Shown here piece after piece: positions 15,326 to 54,093 of a stretch of DNA of 64,000 nucleotides. Each line of letters opens with the position of its first letter. Position 1 is the stretch's first letter. The notes below the pieces were generated by a model. It searched no databases. It was given only the letters and a program-made list of their open reading frames with translations, and was not told the DNA's origin. The stretch is taken from contig JAFWFS010000013.1 in assembly GCA_017515475.1 (NCBI GenBank), positions 1 through 64,000 of the forward strand, written 5' to 3'. Made by a program: the position numbers and the translations under genes. This DNA comes from Erysipelotrichaceae bacterium (lineage in GTDB: Bacteria > Bacillota_I > Bacilli_A > Erysipelotrichales > Erysipelotrichaceae).

Positions 15326-17338
15326 TTAATCGTCGTCTTCGTCTTTTCTTTCAGCGGCCGTAGCGGCAACAACCTTGTCGGTAACGTTCTGAGGAGCAGG
15401 TTCATAACGGTCGAAATCAATGACGTACGTACCTCTGCCCTTGGTCATGGAACGCAGTTCTGTCGCATACTTCAGCATTTCTGCCATCGGTACTTCGGCT
15501 TCGATACGTGCTTCACCGGATTCGGCGGAACCCGTATCCAGGATCATGCCACGTCTCTTGTTGAAATCGCCGATGATGTCGCCGGTATACTCTTCCGGAC
15601 AGATAACGGTAACCTTGCCGATCGGTTCCAGAAGGATCGGGTTTGCCTTAGGAATACCGGCCTTGAATGCCAATCTGGCGGCTGCTTCGAAGGAGTTCGG
15701 TTTAGAGTCAACCGGATGGTAGGATCCATCATACAGCGTAGCCTTAACATTAACGACCTTGCAACCAGCCAGAGGGCCCTTAGCCATGCAGCCTCTTAAG
15801 CCTGCCTCGACAGACGGGAAGTAGTTCTTTGGAACAGCACCGCCAAATACTTCTTCCGCGAATACCATTTCTTCTGAATCAGGATTCGGTTCGAATCTGA
15901 CCCAGACGTCACCATACTGACCGGCGCCACCGTTCTGTTTCTTATATTTGCCCTGAACCTCGGACTTGCCTCTGATCGTCTCACGATACTGAACTTTCGG
16001 TTCTTTCAGGGCTACTTCTACTTTGTATCTTGATTTGAGCTTGCTGACGACAACATCGATCTGCTGATCGCCTACCGCATAGAGGACCTGCTCGCCTGTT
16101 TCGGCGTTTCTGACGAAGTTCAGTGACTTGTCTTCAATCAGGACTTTCTTCAGAGCATCCGACATCTTGTCTTCATCATCCTTTGTCTTAGGCGATATAG
16201 CAACGCCAAGCATCGGTCTAGGATATTCGATATCCTTGAATACGACTTTCTTGTCTTTTGTGCACAGCGTATCGTTAGATTCCGTTACAGCCAGCTTGGT
16301 TAATGCGCCAAGATCGCCGCAGGAAAGCTTGTTTACAGGAAGCTGCTGCTTGCCCTGGATGACAAACAGACCGCCGGCTTTTTCATTCTGATCTTTCTTG
16401 GAGTTGTATAAAGGAGTCGTAAGACTCAGTGAACCGGACATGACTTTGACATAAGAAATCTTTCCAACGAAAGCATCGACGACTGTCTTGAACACCAGTG
16501 CGGAGAACACTTCGGAATCATCGGTCTTCAGTTCTAAGCCGTTGGCATCCTTAACAGTGCCCTGATCGGCATAGATCGGACAGTTCTCTTTCATGAAGTC
16601 GAGAACCTGGTCGACACCCTGGGCATTGACGGCACTGCCGGCAAGTATCGGTTTAATATCGCCGGATTTCAGAGCGAGTTTCAGACCCTTCGCAGTCTCT
16701 TCCGGAGTAAACGCTTCACCCTCGAAGAATTTCTCCATCAGTTCGTCATCGGCTGATGCGATAGCTTCAGCGATCTGATCGTAATGAGCGTTGGACGGAT
16801 CGTCCAGAACTCTGCTGGAACCGGTCATCTTCTTTCCATCCATGACAGGAACCGCAAACGGAACGGCAGAAGTGCCGAACTTATCTCTCAGTTCATCGAC
16901 TGTCTTCTCGAAATTCGCGTTATCATCATCGATCTTATTGATAAAGAAAACGATCGGCAGGTTCATCTTCTTGCAGAGCTTGACTGCGCTTTCTGTTCCG
17001 GATTCGATACCATCTTTTGCGGATACAACGATCATAGCCAGATCGGCTGCAGCAGCACCGGAAACCTTTTCACCTTCATAATCCAGATATCCCGGCGTAT
17101 CGATGAAATTGATCTTGGTATTCTTCCATTCAACAGGTCCTAAAGCCGTAAATACAGACAGACCTCTCTTGGATTCTTCCGGATCATAGTCCATTGCGGA
17201 CGTGCCGTCTACCGTCTTCCCCATACGGTCGACAGCCTTGGTCAGATACAGTGCAGCTTCTACAAGAGCCGATTTGCCGGAACCGGAATGTCCCAGCAAT
17301 ACAACATTTCTAACGTCTTTTGATAAGTACTCTTTCAT
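15326..17338 (-). CDS. elongation factor G-like translational GTPase (EF-G2 type)
   Basis: 670 residues with the EF-G domain order: GTPase (1-270), domain II (about 290-370), then domains III-V. It is not the main EF-G: the P-loop is GHSGSGKS (16-23) instead of AHIDAGKT, G3 is DTPGY (80-84) in place of DTPGH so the catalytic His is Tyr, and the tail is acidic (ERKDEDDD). This combination is typical of the EF-G2/FusA2-like group, where GTPase behaviour and role differ from canonical EF-G and are poorly defined. Starts 15 bases after the ankyrin gene and shares its leader, so expression may follow ribosome state. Confidence 0.88.
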   Translation of the reverse strand: MKEYLSKDVRNVVLLGHSGSGKSALVEAALYLTKAVDRMGKTVDGTSAMDYDPEESKRGLSVFTALGPVEWKNTKINFIDTPGYLDYEGEKVSGAAAADLAMIVVSAKDGIESGTESAVKLCKKMNLPIVFFINKIDDDNANFEKTVDELRDKFGTSAVPFAVPVMDGKKMTGSSRVLDDPSNAHYDQIAEAIASADDELMEKFFEGEAFTPEETAKGLKLALKSGDIKPILAGSAVNAQGVDQVLDFMKENCPIYADQGTVKDANGLELKTDDSEVFSALVFKTVVDAFVGKISYVKVMSGSLSLTTPLYNSKKDQNEKAGGLFVIQGKQQLPVNKLSCGDLGALTKLAVTESNDTLCTKDKKVVFKDIEYPRPMLGVAISPKTKDDEDKMSDALKKVLIEDKSLNFVRNAETGEQVLYAVGDQQIDVVVSKLKSRYKVEVALKEPKVQYRETIRGKSEVQGKYKKQNGGAGQYGDVWVRFEPNPDSEEMVFAEEVFGGAVPKNYFPSVEAGLRGCMAKGPLAGCKVVNVKATLYDGSYHPVDSKPNSFEAAARLAFKAGIPKANPILLEPIGKVTVICPEEYTGDIIGDFNKRRGMILDTGSAESGEARIEAEVPMAEMLKYATELRSMTKGRGTYVIDFDRYEPAPQNVTDKVVAATAAERKDEDDD

Positions 17339-17353
17339 TTCTTCTTCCCCTTA

Positions 17354-18025
17354 TTATTTCAGAACATTAAGCAGTTCTTCATCGCTTTTTGTGCGTACGT
17401 ACTGCAGTGCGGTTCTTCCTGCGTTGTCCGTAACCGTCTTATCCGCACCTTTACGTATCAAATATATCACTAAATCCGTATAACCGCCATAGCTTGCACG
17501 CATCAGACAGGTACAGCCTTCATTATCTCTTTTATTGATATCCGCTCCCTTTTCCAGAAGATAACGGATCACATCCACCTTGAATGCCAGTACCGCTTCC
17601 ATCAGAGCCGTACGGCCTTTGCTGTCAGCCAGATCCAGAGTTGCTCCCGATTCTACCAGACACTCCACCGTCGCCGTCTCTCCAAGGAAAGCCGCACGCA
17701 TCAGCGCTGTTCTGCCTTCGTTGTCTTGCGCATCTACATCGCTTCCGGCTTCTATCAGCATCTCACAGATATGACGGTGTCCATGTTTTGCAGCACCCAT
17801 CAGAGCCGTATCGTCGTTCTTGTCTCTGGCTTTCACATCTACGCCCTTGCCGATCAACGTTTCAACAATCTCATCATAGCCTCTCTTAGAAGCTCTCATC
17901 AGTCCGGTCCTGCCGTCACCGTTCTTGCAGTTGACATCCGCTCCCTGAGCAAGCAGCTCATTTACCAGATCCAGTCTTCCCGTCGTACAAGCCTCTAACA
18001 GAGCATCATTCTGTGTCTGTTCCAT
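17354..18025 (-). CDS. ankyrin-repeat protein
   Basis: 223 residues built almost wholly of about six 33-residue ankyrin repeats; the repeat core is seen as GRTGLMRASKRGYDEIVETL, DDTALMGAAKHGHRHICEML, GRTALMRAAFLGETATVECL and so on. No signal peptide or enzyme domain, so a cytosolic protein-binding partner. Start at 18025 is set by GGAGG upstream; an earlier in-frame Met at 18079 would sit inside the terminator hairpin. First gene of a two-gene unit with the EF-G-like GTPase, suggesting it may bind or regulate that GTPase (inference). Confidence 0.88.
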   Translation of the reverse strand: MEQTQNDALLEACTTGRLDLVNELLAQGADVNCKNGDGRTGLMRASKRGYDEIVETLIGKGVDVKARDKNDDTALMGAAKHGHRHICEMLIEAGSDVDAQDNEGRTALMRAAFLGETATVECLVESGATLDLADSKGRTALMEAVLAFKVDVIRYLLEKGADINKRDNEGCTCLMRASYGGYTDLVIYLIRKGADKTVTDNAGRTALQYVRTKSDEELLNVLK

Positions 18026-18050
18026 CTCTCTTACCTCCTTTATTTGACAA

Positions 18051-18081
18051 TAAAAAAGTGAACGCAATGAAACGTCCACTT
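18051..18081 (-). terminator. terminator-like hairpin in the ankyrin/EF-G-like leader
   Basis: Minus strand AAGTGGACG, 8-base loop, CGTTCACTT, TTTTATTG. It ends about 12 bases before the ribosome site of the ankyrin gene, leaving no room for a promoter after it, so it most likely works as an attenuator. Confidence 0.7.
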
Positions 18082-18088
18082 CAAAAAA

Positions 18089-18163
18089 TCAGTGTAAGTA
18101 AAACACAAGTAAGGAGTCAACGACCCCTAAGACAGTATTCTCCATCTTGTTTAATACTTTCAT
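18089..18163 (-). CDS. possible 24-residue leader peptide
   Basis: ATG at 18163 to TGA at 18089, between promoter and terminator hairpin. The peptide begins MKVLNKMENT and ends in a hydrophobic stretch (VVDSLLVFYLH). Its stop codon lies 8 bases before the terminator stem. Ribosome site is weak (AAGG, 13 bases upstream). Leader peptides in this position commonly control antibiotic-response genes by ribosome stalling; a chance ORF of this size cannot be excluded. Confidence 0.35.
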   Translation of the reverse strand: MKVLNKMENTVLGVVDSLLVFYLH

Positions 18164-18189
18164 ATGATATACAACCTTATCTACCTATC

Positions 18190-18218
18190 ATTTTACCTTC
18201 TAAACATGCTTGTTTCAA
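18190..18218 (-). promoter_or_regulatory. promoter of the ankyrin/EF-G-like unit
   Basis: Minus strand -35 TTGAAA (18213-18218), 17-base spacer, -10 TAAAAT (18190-18195). Predicted leader about 155 bases. Confidence 0.6.
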
Positions 18219-18241
18219 GTAGATTAACCATGTAAATACTT

Positions 18242-18916
18242 TCATTGTTTCAGTTTCTTCTGCGATGTCTTATACTCCGGCATATTCCTTTCGACGATGT
18301 CGTAGAACCTGCGGGAATGGTTCGGAATGATGAAATGCGTCAGTTCGTGCAGGACGATGTATTCAAGGCAATCCAGAGGATAATGAATCAGATAGGAGCT
18401 GATTACGATCTTGTTTTTTCGGGTATAGCACACGCCCCATTTGGAGCTCATGGCGCGGCAGCTCATCTCCGGGATCTGATGATAGCCGTAATCATCCAGA
18501 ATGTACTGATACTGATTAAAAAAGACTTCCGCCTGTTTCAGCAGGTATTTATCCAGATACTTGTAAAGGAAACGGATACCTTCCGTAGAGTCTTCTTTGT
18601 AGGTCAGAACGATTGTATCATCATCGATTTCAACGTTTTTCTTTCCGTTGATTCTGACCAGCTTAAACGGCTTCCCGTACAGATAAAAAACATCCCCTTC
18701 CCGGTAGATCAGTGATCTCTGCTGCTTCTGTAAAGACTTCCTGTACGCTTTATAGATCCAGTCCCTTTTTTCTTCCAAAAAGCGATAGATCCGCCATTCC
18801 GGCATAAGATAAGGCACAGAAACCAGAAGCTTATCGCCGTTTACCCGAAGGTACATGTTCTTGATTCTTTTTCGGGTTATTTCCACCTCAAAACGGATCC
18901 CTTTTATTTCCAGCAT
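18242..18916 (-). CDS. YgjP-like zinc metallopeptidase domain protein
   Basis: 224 residues of the YgjP/WLM-type (DUF45) family. Zinc motif HELTH at 190-194 with a third ligand candidate H200 (HSRRF), preceded by the family marker SSKWGVCY (157-164). No membrane segment, so cytosolic. Function of the family is not well defined. Monocistronic. Confidence 0.85.
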   Translation of the reverse strand: MLEIKGIRFEVEITRKRIKNMYLRVNGDKLLVSVPYLMPEWRIYRFLEEKRDWIYKAYRKSLQKQQRSLIYREGDVFYLYGKPFKLVRINGKKNVEIDDDTIVLTYKEDSTEGIRFLYKYLDKYLLKQAEVFFNQYQYILDDYGYHQIPEMSCRAMSSKWGVCYTRKNKIVISSYLIHYPLDCLEYIVLHELTHFIIPNHSRRFYDIVERNMPEYKTSQKKLKQ

Positions 18917-38324: not shown

Positions 38325-38482
38325 TCTGTTTTTTTACCTGAAAGATTCTCCCTTTTGAGGATTGCTTCTTTGGTGCATATTGCTCTCCAGAGTCTGTCCA
38401 AAACCGGTCCTTTTACCTGAGAGTTTCTGATCCCCTTCGGTGTTTCCTAAAATGGAAATCTCTCCCGGTTTCTTCTTCCACT
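38325..38482 (-). promoter_or_regulatory. tandem glycine riboswitch
   Basis: Two aptamers in series on the minus strand. Aptamer 1 (about 38402-38480): GGGAGAGA, CACCGAAGGGG, AACTCTCAGGTAAAAGGAC. Aptamer 2 (about 38325-38400): CTCTGGAGAG, GCACC, AGGGAGAATCTTTCAGGT. These are the glycine-box conserved strings. An ON switch that lets the cleavage operon be made when glycine is plentiful. Confidence 0.95.
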
Positions 38483-46940: not shown

Positions 46941-46949
46941 TTATCGAAA

Positions 46950-47107
46950 GTAATAGCGCCTCTTCTTGCGAAGGAGTGCTACAGGTATTTCCTGTAACCC
47001 CATATCCCGTAAGTGCCTTTGCGGAATATTCGGCGGTGATTGCCTTTCCCGTACTTCATCGCCTGCCGGCTCCATACAGTACTCATCTGCACCGCTACCT
47101 CTATACA
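46950..47107 (-). promoter_or_regulatory. lysine riboswitch (L-box)
   Basis: On the minus strand the conserved L-box order is seen: AGAGGTAGCGGTGCA, GATGAGTA, GGCGATGAAGTACGGGAAAGG, CACCGCCGAAT, then AGAGGCGCTATTAC closing the base helix with the 5' AGAGGTAGCG. Leader for the amino-acid ABC transporter. Confidence 0.9.
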
Positions 47108-47126
47108 CAGATTTTTTATTGGGTTT

Positions 47127-53870: not shown

Positions 53871-53902
53871 AAAACAAAAAGCCATCCCTAAGGACGACTT
53901 TA
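53871..53902 (-). terminator. T-box terminator
   Basis: Minus strand AAGTCGTCC, loop TTA, GGGATGGCTT with wobble pairs, TTTGTTTTT. Competes with the antiterminator that contains the T-box sequence. Confidence 0.8.
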
Positions 53903-53903
53903 T

Positions 53904-54087
53904 CGTGTTACCACCTTAATTCATCATTTGAAATGATCTCGTTGCTATAACGGTATGACCGGATCTTCCTACTGTTTTCAGAAGACCTACTCCACAGTGA
54001 ATTCATCAGATCTTGCCCAACCGTATTCCATCCCCCCGGTCTCTCTATCGGACCCCAACCTGATTACTGGTCTGTTTCCAAGTATTT
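53904..54087 (-). promoter_or_regulatory. T-box riboswitch
   Basis: T-box sequence AAGGTGGTAACACG at 53904-53917, and upstream a long stem I between AGACC (about 54069) and AGGTCT. A specifier-loop arrangement is visible: helix CAGT/ACTG, then GAA-TTC-A on the 3' side. If the codon directly follows GAA the specifier is TTC (Phe); TCA (Ser) is one base off. Transcript start expected near 54087. Confidence 0.9.
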
Positions 54088-54093
54088 AGTGTT

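What the first reader, a model, noticed from the sequence alone, without database searches (positions are those of the whole stretch)
15326..18218. EF-G-like GTPase and ankyrin protein under an attenuator with a short leader ORF
Promoter, a 24-codon ORF ending 8 bases before a terminator hairpin, then ankyrin and EF-G2-like genes. This is the layout of ribosome-stalling attenuators before ribosome-protection and ABC-F genes. The GTPase has DTPGY instead of DTPGH. An ankyrin-GTPase pair induced by ribosome stress would be new to me.
Basis: inference. Interest (0 to 1): 0.55.

Follow-up and report, generated by a model that had tools for sequence, protein, structure and literature searches.

The report
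Leader-peptide switch before alternative EF-G operon
Most sampled genera of one family of gut bacteria carry the same kind of switch, a short valine-rich leader gene that ends on a transcription stop signal, in front of an ankyrin gene and a spare translation elongation factor, which suggests that the spare factor is made only when ribosomes hesitate.

Summary
In this Erysipelotrichaceae genome a promoter-like site, a 24-codon ORF and an intrinsic terminator precede an ankyrin gene and an EF-G paralogue of the EFG II type (DTPGY). The ank-EFG II pair is present in 102 of 103 family loci and in 0 of 39 loci outside the family. An ORF ending within -10 to +16 nt of a terminator hairpin occurs in 82 of 93 leaders that have a terminator (null 12-13) and, one locus per genus, in 35 of 41 (null 6.2); other terminator-like sites in the same loci give 10%. 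Peptide sequence is not kept between genera, but reading frame, stop position and a twofold valine excess (z 9.7) are. No antiterminator complementarity was detected. Best reading: msrDL-type attenuation, where a ribosome held at the leader's end covers the terminator's 5' arm and lets polymerase into ank-EFG II. Cre sites in 18 of 45 genera point to carbon control too; the window's genus lacks a proper one. The inducer is unknown, induction was not testable here, and an antibiotic-resistance role is not supported. New variant of a known kind.

The parts
18229..18244 (-). cre-like palindrome TGAAAGTATTTACATG upstream of the promoter; it lacks the central CG of a cre site
   Evidence: Seen in the window and, with variations, in the genus loci; one other place in the genome with 1 mismatch. 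Proper cre sites occur in 18 of 45 genera, not in this one.
18190..18218 (-). promoter-like site TTGAAA-17-TAAAAT
   Evidence: similar hexamers at the same place in genus relatives by eye
18089..18163 (-). leader ORF, 24 codons, MKVLNKMENTVLGVVDSLLVFYLH*
   Evidence: same-frame ORFs in genus relatives; family-wide counts
18112..18128 (-). small hairpin inside the leader ORF (weak evidence; perhaps a pause hairpin)
   Evidence: predicted in the genus alignment with one-sided changes only
18083..18088 (-). T-tract between leader stop codon and hairpin, possible RNA polymerase pause
   Evidence: TTTT within 9 nt of the foot in 24 of 41 genera against 3.3 in shuffles; strict TTNTTT only 5 of 41 against 1.4
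18055..18082 (-). intrinsic terminator hairpin, followed by a T-run
   Evidence: found in 93 of 100 distinct family leaders
17354..18025 (-). ankyrin-repeat protein, 223 aa
   Evidence: orthologues in 26 of 296 genomes of the class, all 26 in this family
15326..17338 (-). EF-G paralogue of EFG II type, 670 aa, DTPGY in switch II

Best explanation
A ribosome-mediated transcription attenuator controls a two-gene operon, ank-EFG II. RNA polymerase starts upstream of the leader ORF and by default stops at the terminator; the stem ends so close to the ank start (median 34 nt) that a separate promoter does not fit in most loci. A ribosome translating the valine-rich leader reaches a stop codon that lies at the foot of, or inside, the hairpin. 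If it leaves quickly, the hairpin forms and transcription ends. If it lingers (slow last codons, slow release or slow recycling), it covers the 5' arm directly, without an antiterminator, and polymerase, perhaps paused at the T-tract, runs on into ank and EFG II. The EFG II product then supplies an alternative translocase or recycling factor. In many genera a CcpA-type cre site near the promoter adds carbon control. Shown by comparison: operon, leader ORF, terminator, stop geometry, lack of detectable antiterminator, cre sites in other genera. Inferred: that the ribosome causes readthrough, the pause, the inducer, the CcpA-like binder and the protein functions.
For: ORF at the hairpin in 82 of 93 leaders (null 12.3 +- 3.2) and 35 of 41 genera (null 6.2; with a Shine-Dalgarno 27 against 1.2), against 130 of 1305 other terminator-like sites; two more family genomes with only 45% and 46% identical EF-G-like proteins also show a leader ORF and hairpin by eye. 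Stop codon ends at +2 or further into the hairpin in 33 of 38 genera (17 at +2) while hairpin sequences differ (33 distinct stem starts in 38). Valine 15% in frame, 5% and 3% in the other frames, 7.4% in ORFs from shuffled leaders, z 9.7. Complementarity of leader to the terminator 5' arm z +0.19 +- 0.16 over 41 genera. Gap from stem to ank median 34 nt, 10th to 90th percentile 27-48. Seven sister-family EF-G-like genes and 32 other loci lack ank, and I saw no leader-plus-terminator layout when reading their upstream regions (by eye, not scored). msrDL is a worked precedent.
Against: No experiment. In the window and most of its genus the stop ends 5-8 nt before the hairpin, so a ribosome at the stop would mask only the lowest pairs (footprint size recalled). 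The peptides show no common arrest motif; dN/dS is about 0.93. The genus core is conserved at nucleotide level, wobble included, which occlusion alone does not explain. TTNTTT is barely enriched (5 of 41 against 1.4, shuffle maximum 5). One genus (L119) does show strong complementarity to the 5' arm (1 of 100 shuffles as good). 7 of 45 genera lack the ORF by my criteria and 4 lack a terminator.
Confidence: 0.6

Rival explanations
1. Valine (or charged tRNA-Val) attenuator: the leader is rich in valine codons so that valine shortage slows the ribosome and opens the operon, as in leaders of amino-acid biosynthesis operons.
For: Valine is twofold enriched in frame only; GTT is the commonest codon, 83 of 1055.
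Against: Valines are spread along the leader without a peak near the stop, and a ribosome held at an early valine would not reach the hairpin. Runs of valine are not enriched (VV in 12 of 38, null 16.7). The operon holds no amino-acid biosynthesis gene.
Confidence: 0.12
2. Drug-sensing arrest peptide: the leader senses ribosome-targeting antibiotics and EFG II/ank protect the ribosome.
For: Same layout as msrDL, vmlR and HflXr leaders; the product is a translation factor.
Against: Peptides differ between genera; +x+ 9 of 38 against 11.9, RLR 0 of 38; far below the tetracycline-protection cut-off (319.3 against 775 bits); spread through the family.
Confidence: 0.1
3. Opposite logic: ordinary translation of the leader disrupts the terminator, so the operon is on when ribosomes are plentiful and off when initiation fails. 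It reports translation capacity, not stalling.
For: In 33 of 38 genera the stop lies at or in the hairpin, so any ribosome finishing the leader on time would disturb it.
Against: Needs the ribosome to reach the end before polymerase has passed; the cre sites point to use in poor conditions. Neither is decisive.
Confidence: 0.1
4. RNA switch or protein-binding leader, the ORF being secondary.
For: Nucleotide-level conservation of the core in the genus, wobble included, and a small internal hairpin.
Against: No Rfam match at this leader; little covariation; leader fold across genera only z -0.42 +- 0.19; ORF and in-frame valine far above null; the core is confined to the genus.
Confidence: 0.06

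Closest known systems
msrDL-msrD attenuator, Streptococcus (PMC10314930; abstract in the search listing and passages seen)
   Same: Short ORF before an intrinsic terminator and a translation-factor gene; there the ribosome stalled at the stop codon obstructs the terminator; a T-rich pause motif is proposed.
   Different: There a 6-residue peptide senses macrolides and the gene is a mobile ABC-F. Here 21-47 codons as my scan reads them, no shared peptide, a chromosomal family-wide operon of ank and EFG II, inducer unknown.
vmlR leader, Bacillus subtilis (PMC9226507; passages seen) and hflXr/rli80, Listeria (PMC6310831; passages seen)
   Same: uORF, conditional terminator and a translation or ribosome factor downstream; NusG pausing in vmlR.
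   Different: Both use antiterminator structures; none was detectable here.
toiL-topAI, E. coli (PMC12121999; abstract and outline seen)
   Same: One uORF senses several kinds of translation stress.
   Different: Acts through the ribosome-binding site and Rho, not an intrinsic terminator.
fusA2/EF-G2, Bacteroides (PMC6989115; passages seen)
   Same: Second EF-G of a gut bacterium tied to carbon limitation (238-fold rise).
   Different: There a transcription activator is described; here cre-type sites in many genera, a leader attenuator and an ankyrin gene.
EFG II, e.g. Thermus EF-G-2, 1WDT (PMC3150367: abstract, outline, passages, section 16 and part 1 of section 11 seen; PMC4342817 passages)
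   Same: P-loop and G2 marks; all five EF-G domains.
   Different: Ank partner and attenuator; no such context was mentioned in what I saw.

Membership tests
Ribosome-mediated transcription attenuator | Short ORF with a ribosome-binding site between promoter and terminator | tested here: met
   35 of 41 genera against 6.2; with Shine-Dalgarno 27 against 1.2. Translation itself was not measured.
Ribosome-mediated transcription attenuator | Intrinsic terminator before the structural genes | tested here: met
   93 of 100 leaders; 11-pair stem in the window
Ribosome-mediated transcription attenuator | Readthrough changes with ribosome position on the leader | not testable with these tools
   needs a reporter or Term-seq
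Attenuator with antiterminator (vmlR, hflXr type) | Leader segment complementary to the terminator 5' arm | tested here: not met
   z +0.19 +- 0.16 over 41 genera; L119 alone stands out
msrDL-type direct occlusion | Leader stop codon at the terminator, within reach of a ribosome | tested here: met
msrDL-type direct occlusion | The same in the window's own leader | tested here: inconclusive
   Stop ends 6 nt before the foot; masking would be partial
Macrolide-type antibiotic leader peptide | +x+ (R/K-x-R/K) arrest motif | tested here: not met
   9 of 38 against 11.9 in shuffled peptides; none in the window's peptide
Amino-acid biosynthesis attenuator | Leader rich in the amino acid made by the operon | tested here: not met
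   Valine-rich, but the operon encodes ank and EFG II
EFG II subfamily | G2 motif not RGITI, Ser in place of Thr | tested here: met
   RGLSV; own EF-G RGITI (criterion)
EFG II subfamily | P-loop Gly16 and Leu25 (1WDT numbering) | tested here: met
   LLGHSGSGKSAL against IMAHIDAGKTTC in own EF-G (criterion); positions matched by eye
EFG II subfamily | Place in a tree with 1WDT and other EFG II | not tested
   no tree built
Tetracycline ribosomal protection protein | Score above the NCBIfam tet_protect cut-off | tested here: not met
   319.3 bits against 775
CcpA regulon | cre site WTGNAANCGNWNNCW near the promoter | tested here: inconclusive
   18 of 45 genera against 0.17 in single-base shuffles; not met in the window, whose site lacks CG. 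Two LacI-type proteins, both below the ccpA cut-off (267.7 and 172.2 against 442.35 bits)

The most novel reading that the evidence does not exclude
A family-wide sensor of ribosome dwell at a stop codon: the leader peptide is free to drift while reading frame, valine richness and the stop's place on the hairpin are held, so that slow release, recycling or translocation, steps in which EF-G or its partners act, switches on a second EF-G of type II and its ankyrin partner. It would be a self-correcting circuit in which EF-G-type slowness calls up an alternative EF-G, gated by carbon state through cre sites in many genera.
Probability: 0.3. Interest if true: 0.8.

Novelty: new variant of a known kind. 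Interest (0 to 1): 0.6.

Why it matters
EFG II is called widespread and of unknown role in the passage seen of PMC4342817. A conserved attenuator that decides when the gene is read makes that role testable: the stress that opens the leader should be the stress that the protein answers. The family also offers dozens of unrelated leader peptides with one geometry, a natural set for telling peptide-specific stalling from ribosome occupancy as such. I found no report of this operon or attenuator in the listings (open-access PubMed Central only; most subscription papers are not held).

Tried and rejected
Tried without gain. RNAalifold and pair counts on 24 genus leaders: the terminator and a weak internal hairpin, little covariation. 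Cross-genus peptide motif: an EM search beat shuffled peptides (109.3 against 87.5 +- 3.6 for width 6; 157.9 against 117.4 +- 3.6 for width 8), but the 56 peptides still include relatives and the motif has no fixed distance to the stop, so I give it no weight. dN/dS of the genus ORFs (0.93) was not below that of the shifted frames (0.88 and 1.18). Pattern search for the leader core: 20 of 36 genus genomes, one copy each, so no second gene with this core was found. The genus palindrome has one further near-copy in the genome.

Considered and rejected. Known RNA family: the gathering-threshold Rfam scan of the window has nothing at the leader. Tetracycline protection protein: far below cut-off. 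Separate ank promoter after the terminator: a median gap of 34 nt leaves no room in most loci (the longest gap is 149 nt, where it could fit). DTPGY as a special feature: relatives outside the family also lack the His. Known defence gene: EF-G-like none, ankyrin only generic ankyrin models.

Limits of the counts. Family loci: 30 from the genus and 73 of the 80 regions that I chose for genus spread from the 145 matching genomes; the other 7 are sister-family. One search used 100 of the 102 family loci with ank (short or duplicate upstream regions dropped). Seven had no terminator by my scan and were left out of the ORF null, although L037 and others show hairpin or ORF when read. L018 and L033 have ORFs ending 14 and 18 nt before the hairpin and count as misses. 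Loci within a genus are not independent, hence the one-per-genus counts, which take the first locus of each genus. The start codon is the first ATG in frame, so some leader lengths are too long. Of the 39 loci without ank, L104 has only 616 nt upstream. L072, a family locus cut at a contig edge inside EF-G, has no ank in view and is not among the 103. In one search the proteins taken for L087 and L088 were wrong ORFs and their rows are void; their DTPGY is. Searches used the ankyrin protein from its second codon. The cre null is a single-base shuffle; one search counts cre upstream of the leader start as 28 of 82 loci, 20 of 38 genera. Structure prediction, fold searches and covariance models were not used.
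Full report
What is there. The window is from an Erysipelotrichaceae genome (family inferred from the titles of its closest relatives; own assembly G000, 1.3 Mb). On the minus strand a YgjP-like metallopeptidase gene (18916-18242) is followed by a promoter-like site, a 24-codon ORF, an intrinsic terminator, an ankyrin-repeat gene (18025-17354) and, 15 nt on, an EF-G paralogue (17338-15326).

The operon is a family trait. An order-wide search found the EF-G-like gene at E <= 1e-150 in 145 of 196 genomes. I fetched upstream regions from 80 of these, chosen for genus spread, and had 30 loci from the genus. Of 103 loci of the same family 102 have the ankyrin gene beside it; the exception, L182, ends at a contig edge. 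None of 7 loci of the sister family has it, nor any of the 32 loci L087-L118 from outside the family (L104 has only 616 nt upstream). The ankyrin protein is found at E <= 1e-35 in 26 of 296 genomes of the class, all 26 in this family; one listed family genome, G075, has no match. Two family genomes without a match at the strict EF-G cut-off, G039 and G077, also carry ank and a 45% and 46% identical EF-G-like gene, and reading their upstream regions shows a leader ORF and hairpin.

The leader is conserved in position, not in sequence. Of 100 distinct family leaders 93 have a terminator, and 82 of these have an ATG ORF of at least 18 codons ending -10 to +16 nt from the hairpin foot, against 12.3 +- 3.2 expected; with the last 8 nt before the hairpin also held fixed the null is 13.0 +- 3.5. 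By genus, 41 of 45 have a terminator and 38 the ORF in at least one locus; with one locus per genus it is 35 of 41 against 6.2 +- 2.2, and with a Shine-Dalgarno 27 against 1.2. Other terminator-like sites in the same loci give 130 of 1305, with a Shine-Dalgarno 32, against 69 and 51 of 83 leader terminators counted the same way. The stop ends at +2 in 17 of 38 genera, between +3 and +15 in 16 and between -8 and -5 in 5, while the stems differ (33 distinct starts in 38 genera). Peptides do not resemble each other between genera. Inside the genus a motif like ILGVNxSLLV is kept, but at the DNA level, wobble bases included, with dN/dS about 0.93, and its DNA core occurs once in each of 20 of 36 genus genomes.

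A frame-specific signal. Valine makes up 15% of leader residues against 5% and 3% in the other two frames, 7.9% in eight proteins of the window and 7.4% in ORFs found in shuffled leaders (z 9.7). The next largest excess is asparagine (1.4-fold, z 3.1); Trp and Cys are depleted. Valine is highest in the true frame in 32 of 38 ORFs, with no peak at any place. This supports translation of the ORF and is otherwise unexplained.

Mechanism. Three facts point to direct masking of the terminator by a ribosome at the end of the leader. The stop lies at or in the hairpin in most genera. The leader holds no detectable antiterminator (z +0.19 +- 0.16, with one exception, L119). The gap from stem to ank (median 34 nt) forces transcription through the terminator in most loci. 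A T-tract just before the hairpin is enriched (24 of 41 genera against 3.3) and may pause polymerase, as proposed for msrDL and shown for vmlR, although the strict TTNTTT motif is barely above chance (5 of 41 against 1.4). The msrDL attenuator works this way: a ribosome stalled at the stop codon obstructs the terminator. Which stress holds the ribosome is not known. In the window's genus the stop mostly ends 5-8 nt upstream of the foot, so masking would be partial there; this is the weakest point of the model for this very sequence.

The product. The EF-G-like protein has EFG II marks in the P-loop and the G2 motif (against PMC3150367 as seen), keeps the five EF-G domains over the Pfam cut-offs and lacks the switch II His, as do its relatives: 35 of 39 outside the family read DTPG with Y, L or S, none with H, 4 without a match. 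EFG II of Thermus is reported to have intrinsic GTPase activity and to support poly(Phe) synthesis, and EFG II to replace EF-G slowly (as cited in PMC3150367, and PMC4342817), so the missing His need not mean inactivity; whether those proteins share the substitution was not checked. In Bacteroides an alternative EF-G, fusA2, rises 238-fold on carbon limitation (PMC6989115). Here, cre sites in the upstream regions of 18 of 45 genera (0.17 expected) suggest a similar tie to carbon. The window's genus has only a cre-like palindrome without the central CG, and the genome's two LacI-type proteins fall below the ccpA cut-off.

Judgement. Attenuator with a translated leader: likely (about 0.85). Direct occlusion as its mode: about 0.6. 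Sensing of ribosome dwell as such: about 0.3. No paper in the listings seen describes it. I file it as a new variant of ribosome-mediated transcription attenuation.

Noticed in passing
L192-L198, upstream of the EF-G-like gene: In the sister family the EF-G-like gene stands without ank; by eye its promoter region holds cre-like sequences in several loci (e.g. TGTAACCGTTTTCAT), so carbon control of EFG II may be older than the attenuator. Not scored.
   Followed up: partly
leader ORFs of the family, e.g. window 18163-18089: Valine excess, in frame only, spread along the leader; GTT is the commonest codon. No explanation.
   Followed up: partly
window 18055-18082 and genus relatives: The terminator stem keeps a G-U wobble pair in 22 of 24 genus leaders (A-U in the other 2), although A-U would be stronger; the stem may be held weak or the base may have a second use.
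   Followed up: no
window 18242-18916 (-): A YgjP/SprT-like metallopeptidase gene lies upstream of the leader; a match lies upstream of ank in 29 of the 30 genus loci L009-L038 and in several other genera, there sometimes further away.
   Followed up: no
window 53887-54089 (-), 46946-47111 (-), 38395-38477 (-): T-box leader, lysine riboswitch and glycine riboswitch by Rfam.
   Followed up: no
EF-G-like proteins of the genus (L009-L036) against L037, L038 and other genera: Genus proteins are about 663-671 aa against 688-695 aa in the other family members listed, with alignments to most distant members breaking near residue 180: a deletion in the G' part of the GTPase domain is likely.
   Followed up: no
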